Shown here piece after piece: positions 247-54,892 of a stretch of 64,000 nt of DNA (position 1 is its first letter; each line of letters opens with the position of its first letter). Where the stretch lies: assembly GCA_900107365.1 (NCBI GenBank), contig FNPS01000001.1, forward strand, positions 806,001 to 870,000, in the 5' to 3' direction. The stretch is from Flavobacterium aquidurense. Its GTDB lineage: Bacteria > Bacteroidota > Bacteroidia > Flavobacteriales > Flavobacteriaceae. A model generated the notes under the pieces. The model saw only the letters and a list, made by a program, of their open reading frames with translations, did not search any database and was not told where the DNA came from. A program made the translations under genes and the position numbers.

Positions 247-3200
247 ATGTTAGATAAAATTATACAGTTCAGTATAAAGAATAAGTTCTTTATATTGCTA
301 TTTACCCTTGTATTAATTGCCTGGGGAAGTTATTCGCTTAAAAATTTACCGTTAGATGCCTTACCTGATGTTACTAATAATCAGGTGCAAATTATTACGA
401 CAGCGCCTACTTTAGCCAGTCAGGAAGTCGAGCAACTAATTACGTATCCGTTGGAACAGGCAGTAAAAACGGTTCCGGATATTATAGAACTCCGTAGTAT
501 TTCACGCTTTGGATTGTCTGTCGTAACCGTCGTTTTTGAAGACGACGTCGATATTTATTGGGCCAGGGAACAAATATTTCAACGCTTAAAACAAGCCGAA
601 GAAAACATTCCTGCTTATGCCGGTTCGCCTGAATTGGCACCTATAACCACAGGTTTGGGAGAAATTTACCAATATGATGTTTATGCTAAAAAAGGTTATG
701 AAAACAAATATGATGCGATACAGTTAAGAACCATTCAGGATTGGATCATTATTCCGCAATTGCAGGGAATTAAAGGTGTCGCCGATATCAGTACCTGGGG
801 GGGAAAACTAAAACAATATGAAATTGCGGTCAACCCAAATACATTAAACAGTCTTGGCGTTACGATTACCGAAATTTTTGACGCTTTAGAAAAAAACAAT
901 CAAAATACCGGAGGAGCCTATATTGAAAAAGATCAATACGCCTATTTTATTCGTGGTGTCGGAATGGCGAAAGGTGTAAAAGACCTGGGAAATGTTGTGG
1001 TGAAAAATCGCAATGGTTCGCCCGTTTTAGTGCGTGATGTTGCCGAAGTTCGCGAAGGAATTGCACTGCGTTACGGGGCTTCAACCAAAGATGGAAAAGG
1101 AGAAATCGTTTCGGGTTTGGTTTTGATGTTGAAAGGAGAAAACTCCAGCGCAGTGGTGAATCGAATTCATGAAAGAATGGTTCAGATTAATAAAAGCCTG
1201 CCAGAAGGAGTTGTTGCGGAAGCCTTTATTGACAGAGGAAAATTGGTAGACAGTGCTATCGGGACAGTAACAAAAAACCTTTTGGAAGGAGCCTTAATCG
1301 TCATTTTTGTGCTGATTTTATTTCTGGGGAATTTACGTGCCGGATTGATCGTCGCTTCGGTTATTCCGTTAGCCATGCTTTTTGCTGTGATTTTGATGAA
1401 TGCTTTTGGTGTAAGCGGAAATTTAATGAGTCTCGGCGCGATCGATTTTGGAATTATTGTCGATGGTGCCGTTATTATAGTAGAAGCAACGATGCATCAT
1501 CTGCAAAAACTCAAAAGGAATAAGGATTTAACGCAAGACGAAATGGATGTTGAAGTTTACAATTCGGCTTCAAAAATCAGAAATAGTGCCGCTTTTGGAG
1601 AAATCATTATTCTAATCGTATATCTTCCTATTTTGGCTTTAATTGGTACCGAAGGCAAAATGTTCAAACCAATGGCAATGACCGTTGGGTTTGCCGTAAT
1701 TGGAGCCTTTTTACTTTCGTTGACATACGTGCCAATGATGAGCGCGTTATTCTTATCCAAAAATACAGAACACAAAGCCAATTTTAGTGACCGAATGATG
1801 GTTTGGCTGGAGAACTTATATACACCATTTTTAGAGAAAGCATTACAGTTTAAAAAGATAGTTTTGGGAATCTCAGTAGGTTTGTTTGCTGTCGCCTTAC
1901 TGGTTTTTAATAGTATGGGAGGCGAATTTATTCCGACTATTGAAGAAGGTGATTTGGCTATAAACGTATCTATTATGACCGGAAGTTCGCTTACGCAGAT
2001 GGTAGAAACGACAACAAAACTGGAAAAAATACTTAAAGATAAATTTCCGGAAATTAAAACGATAGTAGCCAAAATAGGTAGTGGAGAAATCCCAACCGAT
2101 CCGATGCCAATTGAAAGTGGCGATTTGATTATTGTTTTGAAAGACAAGAAAGAGTGGAAAGGCAAATACCATAACTGGGAAGATTTGGCCAATGCCATGA
2201 AAGAAGAAATGGAAGTGATTCCGGGCTCTAATATTGAGATTTCACAGCCTATCCAGATGCGCTTTAACGAATTGATGACAGGAAGCCGAAGTGATATTGC
2301 CATCAAAATTTTTGGAGATGATTTAGAGATTTTAGATGTTAAAGCAACGGAGTTAATTTCAAAGATTAAAAATATTGAAGGAATTGGAGATTTAAAAGCC
2401 GATAAAGTAACCGGTTTGCCGCAGATTACAATCAAATACGATTATAATAAAATCGCTTTATACGGATTGAATATTTCAGACATCAACCAAATCATTCGTT
2501 CGTCATTTGCAGGAGAAAGCGCCGGAAAAATCTATGAGGAAAGTAAAAGATTTGATGTAGTGGTGAGAATGAATCAGGACAATCGTGCTGATATTACCGA
2601 TGTGAGTAATTTGTTTATTCCGCTTCCAAACGGGCAACAGGTACCACTTTCACAAGTTGCTTCAGTTGATTATGAGCAAGGCCCGGTTCAGGTAACACGT
2701 GAAGACGGAAAACGAAGAATTACCGTTGGTCTAAACGTGCGCGGACGCGATATTAAAAGCGTTGTGGAAGAAATTCAGGAGCGATTAGTTCGGGATTTTA
2801 ATCTTCCTTCAGGGTATTACGTAACATACGGCGGACAATTTGAGAATTTAATCGAAGCCACAAACCGATTAATGGTCGCATTACCAATTGCTTTGGGATT
2901 GATCTTGATTTTGCTGTATCTGACTTTCAACAGTTTTAAACAAGCCGGGTTAATTTTTACTGCCATTCCGTTATCGGCAATTGGTGGGGTTTTTGCCCTT
3001 TGGATGCGAGGTATGCCGTTTAGTATTTCGGCCGGAATTGGTTTTATAGCCTTGTTCGGAATTGCTGTTTTAAACGGAATCGTTCTGATTTCGTATTTCA
3101 ATCAATTAAAAGCAGAAGGAATACTCGATCCGTTACAAAGAGTTTTAATCGGAACCAAAACCAGATTACGTCCCGTTTTAATGACAGCAGCCGTAGCTTC

Positions 3201-3390
3201 TTTGGGATTTTTGCCAATGGCATTGTCAACAAGCGGTGGGGCAGAGGTACAGAAGCCTTTGGCAACCGTTGTTATTGGAGGTTTGGTTTCAGCGACATTA
3301 TTGACATTAATTGTTCTGCCGATTCTGTATTTACTATTGGAGCGTGGACTTAACCGCAAAGAGCGCAAAGATTTACGCAATGAACGCTAA
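247..3390 (+). CDS. czcA: CzcA/CusA-type heavy-metal RND efflux permease
   Basis: Inner-membrane proton-driven permease of the HME-RND family, 1047 residues, the usual family length. It has the duplicated RND plan: a first membrane helix near residues 10-30, a large periplasmic loop, helices from about 340, then a second half. The helix-4 signature is DFGIIVDGAV with D400, D406 and E413; their 6- and 7-residue spacing matches the charged residues known to matter in CzcA. This separates it from the DD-type HAE pump at 30619. Substrate is probably Zn/Cd/Co rather than Cu because the island ends in a Zn/Cd-type P-ATPase and CzcB is His-rich; this is inference. The last dozen codons lie in an intergenic-type repeat (3350-3391), giving a basic tail NRKERKDLRNER. 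czcC starts 17 bp later. Confidence 0.93.
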   Translation: MLDKIIQFSIKNKFFILLFTLVLIAWGSYSLKNLPLDALPDVTNNQVQIITTAPTLASQEVEQLITYPLEQAVKTVPDIIELRSISRFGLSVVTVVFEDDVDIYWAREQIFQRLKQAEENIPAYAGSPELAPITTGLGEIYQYDVYAKKGYENKYDAIQLRTIQDWIIIPQLQGIKGVADISTWGGKLKQYEIAVNPNTLNSLGVTITEIFDALEKNNQNTGGAYIEKDQYAYFIRGVGMAKGVKDLGNVVVKNRNGSPVLVRDVAEVREGIALRYGASTKDGKGEIVSGLVLMLKGENSSAVVNRIHERMVQINKSLPEGVVAEAFIDRGKLVDSAIGTVTKNLLEGALIVIFVLILFLGNLRAGLIVASVIPLAMLFAVILMNAFGVSGNLMSLGAIDFGIIVDGAVIIVEATMHHLQKLKRNKDLTQDEMDVEVYNSASKIRNSAAFGEIIILIVYLPILALIGTEGKMFKPMAMTVGFAVIGAFLLSLTYVPMMSALFLSKNTEHKANFSDRMMVWLENLYTPFLEKALQFKKIVLGISVGLFAVALLVFNSMGGEFIPTIEEGDLAINVSIMTGSSLTQMVETTTKLEKILKDKFPEIKTIVAKIGSGEIPTDPMPIESGDLIIVLKDKKEWKGKYHNWEDLANAMKEEMEVIPGSNIEISQPIQMRFNELMTGSRSDIAIKIFGDDLEILDVKATELISKIKNIEGIGDLKADKVTGLPQITIKYDYNKIALYGLNISDINQIIRSSFAGESAGKIYEESKRFDVVVRMNQDNRADITDVSNLFIPLPNGQQVPLSQVASVDYEQGPVQVTREDGKRRITVGLNVRGRDIKSVVEEIQERLVRDFNLPSGYYVTYGGQFENLIEATNRLMVALPIALGLILILLYLTFNSFKQAGLIFTAIPLSAIGGVFALWMRGMPFSISAGIGFIALFGIAVLNGIVLISYFNQLKAEGILDPLQRVLIGTKTRLRPVLMTAAVASLGFLPMALSTSGGAEVQKPLATVVIGGLVSATLLTLIVLPILYLLLERGLNRKERKDLRNER

Positions 3391-3391
3391 G
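3350..3391 (+). repeat. Intergenic-type GCAAAG repeat forming the end of czcA
   Basis: The sequence starting TTAACCGCAAAGAGCG and continuing with AAAGATTTACGCAATGAACG belongs to the repeat family also seen at 3441-3484, 4680-4740, 5940-5980 and 54709-54832. Here it supplies the last codons and the stop of czcA. Confidence 0.7.
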
Positions 3392-3406
3392 TAAAAATTA
3401 AAGAAA

Positions 3407-4654
3407 ATGAAAAACTCAACATATATATTCAGCCCAAACCCCTTCGCGAACTTCGCGCAAAAAACCTTGCGCACTTTGCGGTTAGGAACGTTCCTATTAG
3501 TCGGTACGTTTGCACAAGCCCAACAATCCATCAGCTTAGAAAAAGCAATAGAACTAGCCAAAACAAACAACATCGACTTAAAAATTGCCGATAAAGAAAT
3601 TGAAAAACAAACCGTTCTTAAAAAGACCGCTTTTCAGGCAGAGCCGCTTCAGGTTCAGTATCAGGGTGGGCAGTTTAATAGTGCCGATTTTGATCATAAT
3701 GTGTCCATTCAGCAATACTTTCCAATCGGGAATATTACAAAAGCGAATCGTCAATTGCAGGAAGAATTAGTAAAACTGGCCGAAAAACGAAAAGCATTAT
3801 CGTCTTATGAAATTGAAAAAGCGGTAACATTGGCGTATTATCAATATCTGTATGGCGTTTCGATTCAGCAATTAAACTCGGAATTAAATGAAATTTACAC
3901 CAAATTTTTAAAGAATGCCGAATTGCGTTTTCAAACCGGAGAAAGCGGAAACATTGAAGTGATCAGTGCAAAAGCAAAAGTAAAAGAAATTGAAACACAG
4001 AAAGCACAATTGGAATATGACTTGGCCATTTACCAAAAACAATTGCAATTTTTTGTTCAGACAGATGAAAACATAATTCCCGATGAAAAAACGGCTTTAA
4101 AATACTCTGTAGTGACGCAAGAAAATTCGAAGGCAGAAGGTTTATTGACGGACTACTATCAACAACAGATTTCGGTTTATCAGAAGGAAACCAATACTTA
4201 CAAAGCAATGCGAACTCCAAAACTGGGAGTGGGTTATTTTGCTCAAAGTATCAACACTGATTGGTTGTTTCAGGGTTTTACGGCAGGCTTGCAAATTCCG
4301 TTGTTTGGCGGAGTAAATTCGGCGAAAGCCAAAGCATCTGAGATTAGTATTTCACAGTCGCAATTGGCTTTGGATAAAAGTAAATTAACGCTAAACCTTC
4401 AACAGCAAGAATTACAAAACAATTTTGCAAAACAGCAAAAAGCACTCGATTATTACCAGAATGAAGGTTTGCAATATGCCGATCAGATTATCAGCACAGC
4501 TCAAAAAAGTTATGCCAATGGTGATATGAGTTATTGGTCGTACATCAGTTTTTTAAATCAGGCGATTGATATTAAAAAACAATATGCCGAGGCGACTCAT
4601 AACTTTAACCAAAGCGCTATCGAACTTCAATTTCCAACTATCAAAAATTATTAA
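3407..4654 (+). CDS. czcC: TolC-family outer-membrane efflux protein, CzcC type
   Basis: Outer-membrane channel of the tripartite metal pump, 415 residues, within the CzcC/CusC range. After the N-terminal export signal (cleavage likely near AQAQQ, residues 37-41) comes the outer membrane efflux pattern, starting ISLEKAIELAKTNN and including repeated long amphipathic helices rich in Gln/Lys/Ala and an FxTGESG turn (about residues 175-181) typical of the family. It has no lipobox, unlike the OprM-type protein at 33806. It follows czcA by 16 bp and ends 4 bp before czcB, so the three genes are one operon. The n-region of the signal peptide (residues about 12-26) is encoded by a copy of the GCAAAG repeat. 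Confidence 0.9.
   Translation: MKNSTYIFSPNPFANFAQKTLRTLRLGTFLLVGTFAQAQQSISLEKAIELAKTNNIDLKIADKEIEKQTVLKKTAFQAEPLQVQYQGGQFNSADFDHNVSIQQYFPIGNITKANRQLQEELVKLAEKRKALSSYEIEKAVTLAYYQYLYGVSIQQLNSELNEIYTKFLKNAELRFQTGESGNIEVISAKAKVKEIETQKAQLEYDLAIYQKQLQFFVQTDENIIPDEKTALKYSVVTQENSKAEGLLTDYYQQQISVYQKETNTYKAMRTPKLGVGYFAQSINTDWLFQGFTAGLQIPLFGGVNSAKAKASEISISQSQLALDKSKLTLNLQQQELQNNFAKQQKALDYYQNEGLQYADQIISTAQKSYANGDMSYWSYISFLNQAIDIKKQYAEATHNFNQSAIELQFPTIKNY
3441..3484 (+). repeat. GCAAAG-family repeat inside the czcC signal peptide
   Basis: CGCGAACTTCGCGCAA followed by CTTGCGCACTTTGCGGTTA, the inverse orientation of the repeat at the end of czcA. It encodes residues of about PFANFAQKTLRTLRL in the leader of CzcC. 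Confidence 0.7.
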
Positions 4655-4658
4655 AAAA

Positions 4659-5906
4659 ATGAAAAATAGACTAAGTAATTTAACCGCAATCCCGATAGCT
4701 ATCGGGAGCAAAGGTTTTACGCAAAGTTCGCAAAGGATAGCAGCCTACAGCTTATTGCTTATAGCCTATAGCGTACTAATAAGCTGTAATGAAAAGAAAG
4801 AGGAAGAAACGCATGAAGAAGAAAAATCATCTACAGAAGTTGCTTTAACGGCTTCTCAATATAAAACTATTGGCATTGAAACGGGTTTTGTAGAAAACAG
4901 AAATCTCAATAAAGTAATTAAAGCAAACGGGTACACAACCGTTCCACCGCAAAATTCTGCTGAAGTTTCGACTTTAATTGGCGGAACTGTGAAAGATATT
5001 TTTGTTCTGGAAGGCACTTTTGTGAATAAAGGGAAAGTTTTGGCTACGATTCAAAATTTAGAAGTGATTGAAATGCAGGAAGAATACCATTCGGCTACAG
5101 CCAATATCGAATATTTGCAATTGGAATACAATCGCCAGAAAACATTGAGTGATGAAAATGTAAATCCGAGGAAAACTTTTCAGGAAGTAAAAGCAAAACT
5201 GGCAGCAGAAAGAGCAAAAGCACAGGCAGCGAAAAATAAACTGGAAGCGTTGCATGTAAGCACAAAAGGAAGTACTTCACTAGTACCCATTGTAGCTCCA
5301 ATAAGTGGTTACGTTGGTAAAATAAGCATTGCAAAAGGTGCTTATGCCCAAACCGGAGTTTCGTTGTTTGAAGTGGTTGATAACAGCCAAATGCATTTGG
5401 ATCTCAATGTTTATGAGAAAGATTTAGGATCTATTTCACTAGGTCAGGTAATTGATTTTGTATTGACGAATCAATCGAATAAATCAATTAAAGGAAAGAT
5501 ATTCGGAATCAATAAATCCTTTTCAAATGAAAGCAAAACGGTTGCTGTTCACGCTAAAATCGAATCGGCAGATGCGAAAGGATTAATTCCGGGAATGTAT
5601 GTTTCGGCGAATATTAATATCACAAACGCTACTGTTCCTGCTTTACCAAAAGACGCTGTGGTTCGAAATGCCGATAAGTATTTTGTTTTTGTTGAAGAAG
5701 ACGAACACAAAGAGAAATCGGAGAATAAAGAAAATCACGAGAAAGAAATTCATTTTAAAGCCATAGAAGTAATTCCCGGAACGACAGATTTAGGTTTTAC
5801 AGAAGTGAAGTTTGTTGATGAAATTGCACCAAATGCTAAAATTGTTACGGAAGGAGCTTTTTATTTATTATCTGCGATGAAAGGCGGAGGCGAACATGAG
5901 CATTAA
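4659..5906 (+). CDS. czcB: CzcB-type membrane fusion protein (lipoprotein)
   Basis: Periplasmic adaptor linking CzcA to CzcC, 415 residues. The first ATG after the czcC stop (4659) gives a long leader ending LIS-C43, a lipobox, so the mature protein is membrane anchored. A barrel/lipoyl part follows (LIGGTVKDIFVLEGTFVNKG, then PIVAPISGYVGKISIAKGAYAQTG), enclosing a helical hairpin at about residues 140-195. Near residues 345-365 lies a Glu/His/Lys-rich stretch (EEDEHKEKSE...HEKEIHF) and the protein ends GGGEHEH, plausible metal-contact segments. The leader (residues about 8-43) is encoded entirely by repeat families: a GCAAAG copy, the palindrome TCCCGATAGCTATCGGGA, and heptamers read as AYSLLLI/AYSVLIS. 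An upstream in-frame ATG at 4566 lies inside czcC and is unlikely. Confidence 0.9.
   Translation: MKNRLSNLTAIPIAIGSKGFTQSSQRIAAYSLLLIAYSVLISCNEKKEEETHEEEKSSTEVALTASQYKTIGIETGFVENRNLNKVIKANGYTTVPPQNSAEVSTLIGGTVKDIFVLEGTFVNKGKVLATIQNLEVIEMQEEYHSATANIEYLQLEYNRQKTLSDENVNPRKTFQEVKAKLAAERAKAQAAKNKLEALHVSTKGSTSLVPIVAPISGYVGKISIAKGAYAQTGVSLFEVVDNSQMHLDLNVYEKDLGSISLGQVIDFVLTNQSNKSIKGKIFGINKSFSNESKTVAVHAKIESADAKGLIPGMYVSANINITNATVPALPKDAVVRNADKYFVFVEEDEHKEKSENKENHEKEIHFKAIEVIPGTTDLGFTEVKFVDEIAPNAKIVTEGAFYLLSAMKGGGEHEH
4680..4777 (+). repeat. Composite repeat encoding the CzcB leader
   Basis: Three repeat families in a row. The GCAAAG repeat (4680-4740) is interrupted by the perfect 18-bp palindrome TCCCGATAGCTATCGGGA (4690-4707). 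Heptamers follow: GCCTACA, GCTTATT, GCTTATA, GCCTATA, GCGTACT (4743-4777). The heptamer type recurs in the intergenic array at 23984-24210. All lie inside the czcB reading frame. Confidence 0.85.
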
Positions 5907-6129
5907 AATAGTTTTCTTTGTTTAAGGTTTCAAGTTTCAAGTTGAGAAACTTTGCGACTTAGCGCCTTTGCGCGATTAAATAAAAAAATATTAGATAAAA
6001 ACAATTGTCGTAAAATATGTAACTTTAGAAAGTGTTTCATTTAGAACGTGGATGACGCGGATTTTAGATCCAATCCAGGCATCAACATAAAACCTGAAAC
6101 CTGAAACAAAATAAACTTGAAACTTCCCT
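5907..6129 (+). other. Gap with repeats and possible promoter before the P-type ATPase
   Basis: Contains a TTTCAAGTTTCAAGTT-like repeat, a GCAAAG-family copy (about 5940-5980), and near 6085-6120 a run of AACCTGAAACCTGAAAC type. A weak TAACTTTA near 6019-6026 resembles a Bacteroidota -7 box (TAnnTTTG), so the ATPase may have its own promoter. Confidence 0.4.
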
Positions 6130-8124
6130 ATGGAACATACAGAAGAAAAAATAATAAAAAAGAAAACAAATCAATCCGGTTGCTGTTCAGCACACGAAGA
6201 ACACCATCATACCGACGATGACGGGCACGATCACGATCACGATCACGAACATAATGCAGATGGAAATGTATTTCAAATGTTTCTTCCTGCAATAATTTCT
6301 TTTATTTTATTGCTCATCGGAATTGGGTTTGATAATTATTTTCCACAAAGCTGGTTTTCCGGTTATGTTAGAATTGGATGGTATATTATCGCTTATTTGC
6401 CAGTTGGAATTCCGGTTTTGAAAGAAGCTTATGAAAGCATTACAAAAGGTGATGTCTTTTCAGAATTTTTCCTGATGTGTATTGCCACGATCGGTGCTTT
6501 TGCTATTGGAGAATATCCTGAAGGCGTTGCGGTTATGCTGTTTTACACTATTGGTGAAAACTTTCAGGGATTGGCAGTTAGCAGGGCAAAATCAAACATT
6601 AAGAGTTTATTAGATCAACGTCCGGACGAAGTAAATATCATTGAAAATAATGTGGCGACAAAAGTCAAAGCGGCTGATGTTAAAATAGGAGCGATTATTC
6701 AGCTTAAAGCGGGAGAAAAATTAGGTTTAGACGGAGAATTATTATCTGATACCGCTTCGTTTAATACCGCTGCACTTACAGGTGAAAGTAAACCTGCAAC
6801 AAAAGTAAAAGGAGAAACCGTTTTAGCGGGAATGATTAACGGAAATACCATAGCACAGGTAAAGGTTACGACCGATTATAAAGACAGTAAATTGTCCAGA
6901 ATCCTTGAAATGGTTCAGAATGCCACCACTAAAAAAGCACCGGCTGAATTGTTTATCCGAAAATTTGCCAAAATTTATACGCCTATTGTCGTGTATTTGG
7001 CCATTGCAATTTGTTTGCTTCCAATGCTTTTTGTGGATCATTATATCTTTAGCGATTGGCTGTACAGGGCTTTGGTTTTTCTGGTAATTTCTTGTCCTTG
7101 TGCCTTAGTTATCAGTATTCCGCTTGGGTATTTTGGTGGAATTGGAGCTGCGAGTAAAAACGGAATTCTCTTTAAAGGAAGTAATTTCCTGGACAGTATT
7201 TCGACGATTCAAAATGTTGTAATGGATAAAACCGGCACCATGACCGAAGGTGTTTTTAAGGTACAGGAAGTTATTATTTCAGAGGATTTAGATAAAGAAG
7301 AAATTCTGAAATTAGTCAATGCTTTAGAAAGCCAGAGTACACATCCGGTGGCGACGGCTATTCATAATCATGTTGGAGCGATAGATTCTTCGATTGAATT
7401 GAAAAATGTAGAAGAAATTTCAGGACACGGATTAAAAGCGGAAATAAACGGAAAAGAACTTCATGTGGGGAATTTCAAATTAATGGATAAATTCAATATT
7501 AAATATGATTTGGATCCCAATTCGGTGATTTACACTACGATTGCTATCGCTTATGATAAGAAGTTTGCCGGCTATTTAACCATCGCAGATGAAATAAAAG
7601 AAGATGCTCAGGAAACGGTAAGTAAACTAAAAGCATTAGGAGTTAAAGTAACAATGCTGAGCGGCGATAAAACCAATGTGGTACAATTTGTGGCAGATAA
7701 ACTCGGAATTACAAATGCTTTTGGGGATTTGCTTCCGGAAGATAAAGTCAATAAACTAAACGATATTAAAGCCAAAAATCAAACCGTAGCTTTTGTTGGC
7801 GATGGTGTAAATGATGCACCTGTTATTGCCTTAAGCACAGTTGGAATTGCGATGGGAGGTTTAGGAAGCGATGCCACGATCGAAACCGCTGATATCGTTA
7901 TCCAGGATGATAAACCAAGCAAAATTCCGATGGCAATTAACATCGGAAAACAAACTAAAAAAATTGTCTGGCAAAATATTACCTTGGCTTTTGTAGTAAA
8001 AGCTTTTGTATTGATTCTAGGTGCAGGCGGACTTGCAACCATGTGGGAAGCTGTTTTTGCTGATGTTGGAGTGGCGCTGTTGGCGATATTAAATGCGGTT
8101 AGAATTCAGAAAATGAAGTTTTAA
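6130..8124 (+). CDS. Zn/Cd/Co/Pb-type P1B ATPase
   Basis: ATP-driven exporter moving a soft divalent metal from cytoplasm to periplasm, where the Czc pump could take it further. 664 residues. The N-terminus has no CXXC metal-binding domain; instead it has a Cys-Cys pair and a His/Asp-rich run (residues about 18-42). Visible motifs: TGES at 217-220 (actuator), CPC at 322-324 in the transport helix, DKTGT with phosphorylated D366, STHPVAT (nucleotide-binding HP), and GDGVNDAP around 557-564. All catalytic residues are present, so it should be active. The CPC motif and His-rich start fit ZntA/CadA-type proteins better than CopA, but metal choice is inferred. A hairpin terminator follows at 8149-8178. 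Confidence 0.92.
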   Translation: MEHTEEKIIKKKTNQSGCCSAHEEHHHTDDDGHDHDHDHEHNADGNVFQMFLPAIISFILLLIGIGFDNYFPQSWFSGYVRIGWYIIAYLPVGIPVLKEAYESITKGDVFSEFFLMCIATIGAFAIGEYPEGVAVMLFYTIGENFQGLAVSRAKSNIKSLLDQRPDEVNIIENNVATKVKAADVKIGAIIQLKAGEKLGLDGELLSDTASFNTAALTGESKPATKVKGETVLAGMINGNTIAQVKVTTDYKDSKLSRILEMVQNATTKKAPAELFIRKFAKIYTPIVVYLAIAICLLPMLFVDHYIFSDWLYRALVFLVISCPCALVISIPLGYFGGIGAASKNGILFKGSNFLDSISTIQNVVMDKTGTMTEGVFKVQEVIISEDLDKEEILKLVNALESQSTHPVATAIHNHVGAIDSSIELKNVEEISGHGLKAEINGKELHVGNFKLMDKFNIKYDLDPNSVIYTTIAIAYDKKFAGYLTIADEIKEDAQETVSKLKALGVKVTMLSGDKTNVVQFVADKLGITNAFGDLLPEDKVNKLNDIKAKNQTVAFVGDGVNDAPVIALSTVGIAMGGLGSDATIETADIVIQDDKPSKIPMAINIGKQTKKIVWQNITLAFVVKAFVLILGAGGLATMWEAVFADVGVALLAILNAVRIQKMKF

Positions 8125-23977: not shown

Positions 23978-23983
23978 TTTTTT

Positions 23984-24210
23984 AGGCTTTAGGCTTTAAG
24001 CTGTAGGCTATAGGCTTTTTTAGAGAACCTACAGCTTAACGCTTATAGCAATTATTATTTTTTGCTTTATGCTTTAGGCAATATGCTTAAGCATTTTTAG
24101 TGTTAATTTTTTAGCTTCAGACAATATGTATTAAGCTTTTTTGGAAAGCCTAAAGCCTACAGCCTATAGCTGAAAAAAGCCTATAGCCTAAAGCTTATAG
24201 CCTACAGCCT
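23984..24210. repeat. Heptanucleotide repeat array in two opposite blocks
   Basis: Left block: five units of AGGCTTT/AAGCTGT/AGGCTAT at 23984-24018. Right blocks, in the opposite orientation: AAAGCCT, AAAGCCT, ACAGCCT, ATAGCTG (24145-24172) and AAAGCCT, ATAGCCT, AAAGCTT, ATAGCCT, ACAGCCT (24176-24210). Degenerate copies lie between. The blocks can pair into a long stem. The same heptamers form the czcB signal peptide at 4743-4777. Confidence 0.85.
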
Positions 24211-24213
24211 ATA

Positions 24214-54428: not shown

Positions 54429-54892
54429 TCTTAATACTCTTTATAAAATTTAACGAAACAAACGATAACCCGGAAGGCCATTAAACTCAATATGCTCCAA
54501 AAACTTTTTCATTTGAATTTAAGCCATTCCAGAGTACCGCTATATTGACACTTACGTACAATTTGAAATTTTGGTTTTGTTAAAATTTACAGAATTTTTA
54601 AAAAATGTTATAAAATTTCCATATTTATATTTTAAGTAATTGATTATGCGTTTTTTATAAAAAGAAGTTTTTTTTATAATTTTTTTTATTTGATGCAACA
54701 ACTTTGAGGTTTAACCGCAAAGTACGCCAGGCATTACGCAAAGTTCGCAAAGCTATAATCAGAAAGCTTTGCGAACTTTCTTTTTTATAGCGTACGTCAC
54801 TTAAAAAAACTTTGCGGACTTTGCGGTTAAATTTTTCAGTTTTATAATTAAAATTGATATTTTCTTATCTTTATAAAATAAAATTATAATCA
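54429..54892. other. 464-bp gap with repeats before oxyR
   Basis: Very AT-rich, with the GCAAAG-family inverted repeat at 54709-54832 and otherwise no gene or clear promoter seen. The -7-like TATCTTTA at 54866-54873 may serve oxyR. Confidence 0.45.
54709..54832. repeat. GCAAAG-family inverted repeat element
   Basis: Outer arms TTTAACCGCAAAGT and GACTTTGCGGTTAAA; inner arms AAAGTTCGCAAAGCT and AGCTTTGCGAACTTT. About 124 bp in all, the full-length form of the repeat whose pieces occur in czcA, czcC and czcB. Confidence 0.8.

What the first reader, a model, noticed from the sequence alone, without database searches (positions are those of the whole stretch)
4659..4790. Lipoprotein signal peptide of czcB is built from three intergenic repeat families
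Residues about 8-43 of CzcB are encoded by a GCAAAG repeat, an 18-bp palindrome TCCCGATAGCTATCGGGA and heptamers (GCCTACA, GCTTATT, GCTTATA, GCCTATA). Three heptamers equal seven codons, so the DNA repeat becomes a peptide repeat AYSLLLI/AYSVLIS that forms the hydrophobic core ending in lipidated Cys43. The same heptamers are non-coding at 23984-24210. This looks like de novo origin or replacement of an export signal from repeat DNA.
Basis: partly seen in the sequence, partly recalled or inferred. Interest (0 to 1): 0.78.

Follow-up and report, generated by a model that had tools for sequence, protein, structure and literature searches.

The report
Export signal built from DNA repeats
The start of a predicted metal-efflux lipoprotein gene in this Flavobacterium is written in repeats that elsewhere mostly lie between genes; the repeats likely took over the protein's export signal once, in an ancestor, and were probably swapped many times since, which would make this a natural experiment in how repeat DNA becomes protein.

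Summary
Codons 8-43 of czcB (4680-4787) are a GCAAAG arm, a perfect 18-bp palindrome (26 copies in this genome) and heptamer units; the other copies examined lie almost all outside genes. The phenomenon is larger than reported. In 80 related operons plus the window, 67 leaders carry or seem to descend from an inverted-repeat element (TTAACCGCAAAG...CTTTGCGGTTA); 14 do not. The 67 lie on one side of the tree, yet the core of 63 of them switches between right arm, heptamers and a frameshifted arm version 25 times in parsimony (weak tree), while flanking DNA does not follow. Coding constraint shows in an arm codon that is hydrophobic in 33 of 33 czcB right arms but in 15 of 56 copies elsewhere in this genome. 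A second copy spans the czcA-tolC junction (3350-3484): it contains the czcA stop and encodes part of TolC's predicted signal peptide. In relatives without arm leaders, czcA and tolC are one open frame, so the element probably split a fused gene. Signal function and the exchange route are inferred, not tested. Closest precedents: Rickettsia palindromic elements and the Yersinia RU-2 element.

The parts
247..3390 (+). czcA, RND transporter; its last 12 codons (NRKERKDLRNER) and stop lie in an inverted-repeat element
   Evidence: TIGR00914 1194.5 bits, cut-off 701.45; sequence
3350..3484 (+). inverted-repeat element across the czcA-tolC junction; ends TTAACCGCAAAG and CTTTGCGGTTA; holds the czcA stop codon (in CGCTAAG) and the tolC start codon
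   Evidence: sequence; both ends exact here, both within 2 mismatches in 47 of 66 rows
3407..4654 (+). tolC, outer-membrane efflux protein (OEP)
   Evidence: PF02321 91.2 bits
3407..3514 (+). predicted signal peptide of TolC (MKNSTYIFSPNPFANFAQKTLRTLRLGTFLLVGTFA); codons 13-26 lie in the right arm of the element
   Evidence: cleavage site inferred by eye
4659..5906 (+). czcB, RND periplasmic adaptor, predicted lipoprotein
   Evidence: TIGR01730 136.3 bits, cut-off 94.9; HlyD_D23
4659..4787 (+). 43-codon leader ending in Cys43 (LISC)
4680..4689 (+). left end of the inverted-repeat element, TTAACCGCAA
4690..4707 (+). 18-bp palindrome, read as IPIAIG
4708..4735 (+). rest of left arm: GCAAAGGTTTTACGCAAAGTTCGCAAAG, read as SKGFTQSSQ
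4743..4777 (+). five heptamer units (the last decayed), read as AYSLLLIAYSV, hydrophobic core
23981..24213 (.). non-coding heptamer arrays, both orientations
54711..54830 (.). intergenic copy of the inverted-repeat element, 120 bp
5950..5973 (.). further CTTTGCG arm in the intergenic space after czcB
   Evidence: by eye

Best explanation
The leader of this czcB is encoded by pieces of three repeat families that elsewhere in the genome lie mostly between genes, and it likely works as an ordinary lipoprotein export signal that an inverted-repeat element probably took over once in an ancestor. Step 1 (inferred from comparison): the element TTAACCGCAAAG...CTTTGCGGTTA entered the leader of czcB; its left arm (GCAAAG) gives basic, hydrophilic residues and its right arm, being the reverse complement, gives more hydrophobic ones, so one element supplies n-region and h-region. 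Step 2 (shown as a pattern, mechanism inferred): in descendants the core was exchanged again and again between right arm, heptamer array and a frameshifted arm version, and palindromes landed in the arms, with edges inside the repeat tract; exchange between repeats by recombination is the likely route. Step 3 (pattern shown, selection inferred): charge, hydrophobic core and Cys were kept, and codons inside the repeats changed in a frame-dependent way. Step 4 (inferred): a second copy at the czcA-tolC junction split an ancestral fused czcA-tolC gene and gave the new tolC part of its signal peptide.
For: Comparative: 80 orthologous loci (best 80 of 153) plus window; 38 leaders have left and right arm, 10 a frameshifted version of it, 15 left arm plus heptamers, 3 decayed, 1 short remnant, 14 no arms (L010, L011, L025, L041 moved by hand). 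The 14 without arms need 1 change on the tree of mature CzcB (SH-aLRT 98), all six states 28, the three main states 25 in 63 rows; six states 27 on CzcB plus TolC. Sister pairs: L029/L047 flanks 92.0 and 90.5% but leader 72.2%; L026/L035 99.0 and 92.0% but 75.6%. Same-type rows are not more alike in six flanking windows, only in the first 24 leader bases (63 rows). Repeat nature: a sister species' leader DNA gives 53 matches in this genome. Constraint: the codon between the last two right-arm units is hydrophobic in 33 of 33 czcB leaders that hold the motif; the same motif in their left arms is AAC (Asn) in 14 of 27, in tolC (another frame) in 29 of 37, and hydrophobic in only 15 of 56 other copies held from this genome. 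Palindrome TAG reads TGG in 11 and TTA in 1 of 12 tolC copies in that frame, while TGG is 1 of 27 copies in this genome. Hydropathy of element halves -0.54 and +0.49; shuffled difference -0.07, sd 0.16. Junction: both ends in 47 of 66 rows; fusion in 14 of 14 rows without arms and 21 of 29 other-genus loci.
Against: No experiment. Intergenic copies are not unusually open: 10.4% of 144 frames versus 8.2% in shuffles, and signal-like frames 6.3% versus 4.3% (sd 1.6), so the element is not a generally ready-made signal. Within two of three leader types, leader and gene distances correlate (Mantel r 0.37 and 0.44, p 0.001; third type r 0.21, p 0.098), and 10 of 15 heptamer leaders share a non-heptamer GGAAT tail: the types look like old alleles that moved, not fresh insertions each time. 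Leaders were cut out as open frames, so absence of stops in them is partly by construction. The counts are not independent across related species and the trees have many weak branches. At the czcA-tolC junction 13 of 66 rows keep only the right end, 3 only the left, 3 neither, though all are split. The order of split and insertion is unresolved.
Confidence: 0.8

Rival explanations
1. The leader types are a few ancient alleles moved between species by ordinary homologous recombination of czcB; repeats matter only as the raw material of the first leader.
For: Leader and gene distances correlate within two of three types; 10 of 15 heptamer leaders share a tail; the types sit scattered on the tree.
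Against: Flanking windows on both sides show no excess likeness of same-type rows (just after the Cys they are, if anything, less alike, 487 of 500 permutations), so the tracts would have to end within or very near the leader. Palindromes occur at different points of the leader and in two frames (8 changes).
Confidence: 0.35
2. The inverted repeat is kept as an RNA hairpin at the start of czcB that regulates translation; the peptide is a by-product.
For: Right-arm leaders fold strongly: z below -2 in 30 of 37 (L024 left out as too long) and in 10 of 10 of the frameshifted version.
Against: 0 of 15 heptamer leaders, 0 of 3 decayed, 0 of 1 short and 0 of 14 arm-less leaders do so, while net positive charge and a hydrophobic stretch are found in all types; no Rfam match in 3000-6200 at E 0.1.
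Confidence: 0.07
3. Neutral clutter: the real start is downstream and the repeat stretch is only untranslated DNA that happens to be open.
For: About one frame in ten of intergenic copies is open anyway; 12 of 67 leaders contain a later Met.
Against: 67 of 67 have ATG 1-4 bases after the tolC stop; the arm codon bias depends on the reading frame; the Cys follows directly after the repeat-encoded core.
Confidence: 0.05
4. czcA and tolC were separated by another event and the element only later settled in the new short junction.
For: 19 of 66 rows lack one or both ends, 3 of them both, yet are split; such elements normally sit between genes.
Against: Rows without arm leaders are fused, rows with them split, with no exception in 81; the czcA stop here is the CGCTAAG variant of a repeat unit, which also occurs in intergenic copies.
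Confidence: 0.3

Closest known systems
Rickettsia palindromic elements (Ogata 2000, as told in PMC2229807 and PMC10969869)
   Same: Inverted repeats of roughly 100-150 bp, translated in frame inside genes with other functions
   Different: There many genes; here, among strict matches in one genome, one operon. Here the element lies in predicted export signals and spans a gene junction
Enterobacterial RU-2 / Yersinia palindromic sequence in YPO1552 (Delihas 2007, PMC2759123)
   Different: One putative exported protein; no replacement history, module switching or gene split in the passages and Discussion that I read
PARCEL palindromic amphipathic repeats (PMC2996958, abstract and outline read)
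   Same: Coding repeats with dyad symmetry, thought to be shuffled within genomes, also in lipoproteins
   Different: Tandem 25-residue domains, not leaders
CzcA-TolC fusion genes of Flavobacteriaceae (seen here in 14 rows and 21 other-genus loci)
   Same: Same operon and domains
   Different: Split into two genes in the 67 rows

Membership tests
Miniature inverted-repeat element (MITE-like) | short, multi-copy, terminal inverted repeats | tested here: met
   31 matches bounded by both ends (1 mismatch each) in held stretches, 54-206 bp, one of them another family (L119) and some in tandem (L098); 89 arm sites in the genome
Miniature inverted-repeat element (MITE-like) | target-site duplication | tested here: inconclusive
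   6 of 24 elements have a flank match of 5 or 6 bases, random pairs reach 5 or more in about 6%; flanks are AT-rich
Miniature inverted-repeat element (MITE-like) | parent transposase | not tested
   no search made
Rickettsia palindromic element | insertion in frame into many unrelated genes | tested here: not met
   67 places with strict arm or palindrome matches: by eye, credible coding overlap only in czcA and czcB (tolC holds a decayed arm); leader searches returned 3 of 11 and 18 of 22 candidates, all with adaptor domains, and 64 of 78, all with the TolC domain
Lipoprotein signal peptide (type II) | basic n-region, hydrophobic core, lipobox with Cys | tested here: met
   81 leaders: net charge at least +1 before the core, best 12-residue hydropathy 1.59 or more, Cys preceded by S, A or G; window LISC. 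Some relatives have N, T or A at -3 (e.g. NLSC in 5), off the recalled consensus
Lipoprotein signal peptide (type II) | lipidation of Cys | not testable with these tools
   needs an experiment
RND periplasmic adaptor (TIGR01730) | score above curated cut-off | tested here: met
   136.3 versus 94.9 bits
CzcB/NccB (TIGR00999) | score above curated cut-off | tested here: not met
   120.8 versus 319.3 bits

The most novel reading that the evidence does not exclude
A short inverted repeat can act as a gene splitter and export-signal donor in one stroke: by base-pair complementarity one arm encodes a basic stretch and the other a hydrophobic one, so a single insertion can end one protein, start the next and equip it for export; the leader then becomes a cassette slot in which repeat modules keep being exchanged under selection on hydropathy alone.
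Probability: 0.45. Interest if true: 0.9.

Novelty: new variant of a known kind. Interest (0 to 1): 0.74.

Why it matters
It is a rare case where the path from repeat DNA to a working-looking protein part can be read in many steps: source repeats still present in the genome, relatives without the arms, decayed forms (L010, L011, L025), a short remnant (L041), a tandem triplication (L024), and a frame-dependent codon bias inside the repeats. It would also give a concrete case of a fused gene split by a small inverted repeat, and a test bed for how little sequence a signal peptide needs.

Tried and rejected
Viral contigs: no relative of CzcB. Rfam on 3000-6200: no match at E 0.1. Idea that heptamer arrays are open in all three frames because 7 is not a multiple of 3: wrong for the consensus, which meets TAG in the other frames. 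Idea that intergenic elements are generally open and signal-like: not supported. RNA hairpin as conserved function: rejected. Leader spread to other genes: none found, but these searches see only proteins of 0.55-1.75 times the query length sharing 5-residue words. First count of the arm codon was faulty: it counted most sites twice and its 'elsewhere' set was mostly the left arms of the same leaders; one search replaces it. Papers: ten searches; no listed title or abstract start describes these Flavobacterium elements or repeat-built leaders in this operon; the library holds open-licence papers only. PMC2759123: passages and Discussion read; PMC2229807, PMC10969869 and PMC6749651: passages; PMC5896051 and PMC2996958: abstract and outline; other papers: listing only. 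Ogata 2000 itself was not read.

Full report
The observation. In the 5.44-Mb genome the palindrome has 26 exact copies, the strict arm pattern 89 sites and the strict three-heptamer pattern six places including czcB. I fetched 71 stretches around these sites, about 0.35 Mb. Among open frames of 100 codons or more that overlap strict sites, only czcA and czcB are credible genes read through the repeat; in L089, L092, L102 and L104 the site lies before the likely start codon (judged by eye). tolC carries a slightly decayed arm. The four heptamer places fetched lie in no open frame of 80 codons or more; two stand shortly before an ATG.

Orthologues. One scan gave 153 relatives, of which the best 80 were kept. 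The leaders are strikingly different while the mature proteins are alike. By DNA I sorted 81 leaders: 38 with both arms of the element, 10 with a version read in another frame (KRKVRKGIKL), 15 with left arm and heptamers (the window among them), 14 without arms; three decayed ones (L010, L011, L025) and a 25-residue remnant (L041) were moved by hand. The exact palindrome is in 8 of 81 leaders, at different places, read as PIAIG in seven and as NPDSYREQ in L053.

What the element is. The leader DNA of the closest species L002 gives 53 matches in this genome at E 0.001 or better; some are the two strands of one place, the czc operon itself is among them, and 40 of 84 candidates were scored. Copies bounded by TTAACCGCAA and TTGCGGTTAA number 31 in held stretches, one of which (L119) is another family and some of which are tandem or nested; one is at 54711-54830 of the window. 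Genomes with arm leaders (or descendants) carry a median of 60 arm sites (66 genomes, 10-115), the 13 others a median of 4 (1-27); F. plurextorum, which holds one operon of each kind, is counted with the first.

History. On a tree of mature CzcB the 14 arm-less leaders need one change (support 98), but the six leader states need 28 changes and the 15 heptamer leaders 15, as scattered as shuffled labels; well-supported branches alone force 6. Among the 63 rows of the three main types 25 changes are needed. CzcB plus TolC gives 27 for the six states. The trees are quick searches with many weak inner branches. Sister pairs keep their flanks and differ in the leader. In the 63 rows, same-type pairs are not more alike than others in DNA up to 300 bases upstream or 360 bases downstream, given overall distance; in the 60 bases after the Cys they are if anything less alike (487 of 500 permutations), and only the first 24 leader bases go with type. 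Against fresh insertion each time: within two of the three types leader distance follows gene distance, and 10 of 15 heptamer leaders share a GGAAT tail.

Marks of coding. The clean test uses the repeats' own sequence as control (which replaces a faulty count). Between the last two right-arm units the czcB frame has one codon: Cys 15, Leu 13, Phe 4, Ile 1 in the 33 leaders that hold the exact motif. The same motif in the left arms of such leaders is AAC, which would be Asn, in 14 of 27 (10 of 27 hydrophobic); in tolC, where the arm is read in another frame, AAC stays in 29 of 37; in other held copies of this genome 16 of 56 are AAC and 15 of 56 hydrophobic. Two weaker signs are conditional on the frame being open. 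In tolC the palindrome can be read in a frame with TAG; 12 copies with at most 4 mismatches lie in that frame and read TGG (11) or TTA (1). Because tolC was cut out as an open frame, TAG could not have been seen; the point is that the TGG form is 1 of 27 copies in this genome. Likewise the heptamer that would read TAG reads TTG 6, CTG 8 or ATG 1 in 15 leaders, and TAA-bearing units, harmless in two phases of three, are 1 of 43 in czcB against 16 of 30 in non-coding arrays. Rows are related, so none of these are independent trials.

Why an inverted repeat suits a signal peptide. Left-arm peptides are hydrophilic or basic in all three frames (RKVRK, AKFAK, QSSQS) and right-arm peptides more hydrophobic (LCELC, FANFA, LRTLR), without stops. 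In 24 intergenic copies, all six frames, the first half averages -0.54 and the second +0.49 on the Kyte-Doolittle scale, a difference of 1.03 against -0.07 (sd 0.16, largest 0.55) in shuffles. But whole copies are not unusually open, nor significantly more often signal-like. So the asymmetry is built in; the open frame is not.

The junction. In the window a full element (3350-3484) runs from the last codons of czcA, through its stop, to codon 26 of tolC. Both ends are found in 47 of 66 rows, the right alone in 13, the left alone in 3, neither in 3; L062 lacks czcA in the locus. All 14 arm-less rows have czcA and tolC in one frame and the other 67 do not; L064 scores as ACR_tran plus OEP. Of 29 loci from other genera, 21 show the same fusion, 6 had no tolC match upstream, 2 were unclear. 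Fusion is therefore probably ancestral. Caution: the arm-less group may in part be a second operon type, since F. plurextorum has both.

Heptamers elsewhere. Five of 11 distinct arm-less leaders (L064, L071, L072, L075-L078, L079) also have a 7-base period that 0 of 1000 codon shuffles reach, from other heptamers (CTTAATA, TTGCTTC and the like); L073, L068 and L080 are weaker (47, 103 and 102 of 1000), L060, L067 and L070 show none. Loose heptamer arrays of this kind occur in 11 of 14 of those genomes, although the reversed control pattern is also met in several. In 27 leaders from other genera the period is weak (0.29 against 0.27; 35 of 500 shuffles as high). The hydrophobic core of this gene may thus have been rebuilt from heptamers more than once.

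Verdict. Export function, lipidation, the recombination route and the order of split and insertion are inferences.

Noticed in passing
L024, czcB leader: Leader tandemly triplicated: 119 residues with three lipobox-like cysteines.
   Followed up: no
L041, czcB leader: 25-residue leader that looks like a deletion remnant of the right arm.
   Followed up: partly
L047 and L071: F. plurextorum holds both a split operon with arm leader and a fused operon without; the arm-less group may be partly a paralogue.
   Followed up: partly
own genome, ends of contigs C12, C13, C20, C28, C29: GCAAAG arm sites, mostly in clusters, lie at or near contig ends, so the family is probably undercounted through assembly breaks.
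   Followed up: no
L083-L085, L091, L093, L119, L143, L147: The same palindrome sits inside another repeat context (GCCAC...AAAAAGATTT and its reverse), by eye, so it looks mobile on its own.
   Followed up: no
L098:2500-4000: Eight arm sites spaced about 164 bp or twice that: a tandem array.
   Followed up: no
L064, L071, L072, L075-L079 czcB leaders: Hydrophobic cores with a strong 7-base period from different heptamers.
   Followed up: partly
window 6130-8124: A long gene with a His-rich start follows the operon; it looks like a P-type metal ATPase (by eye, no family search made).
   Followed up: no
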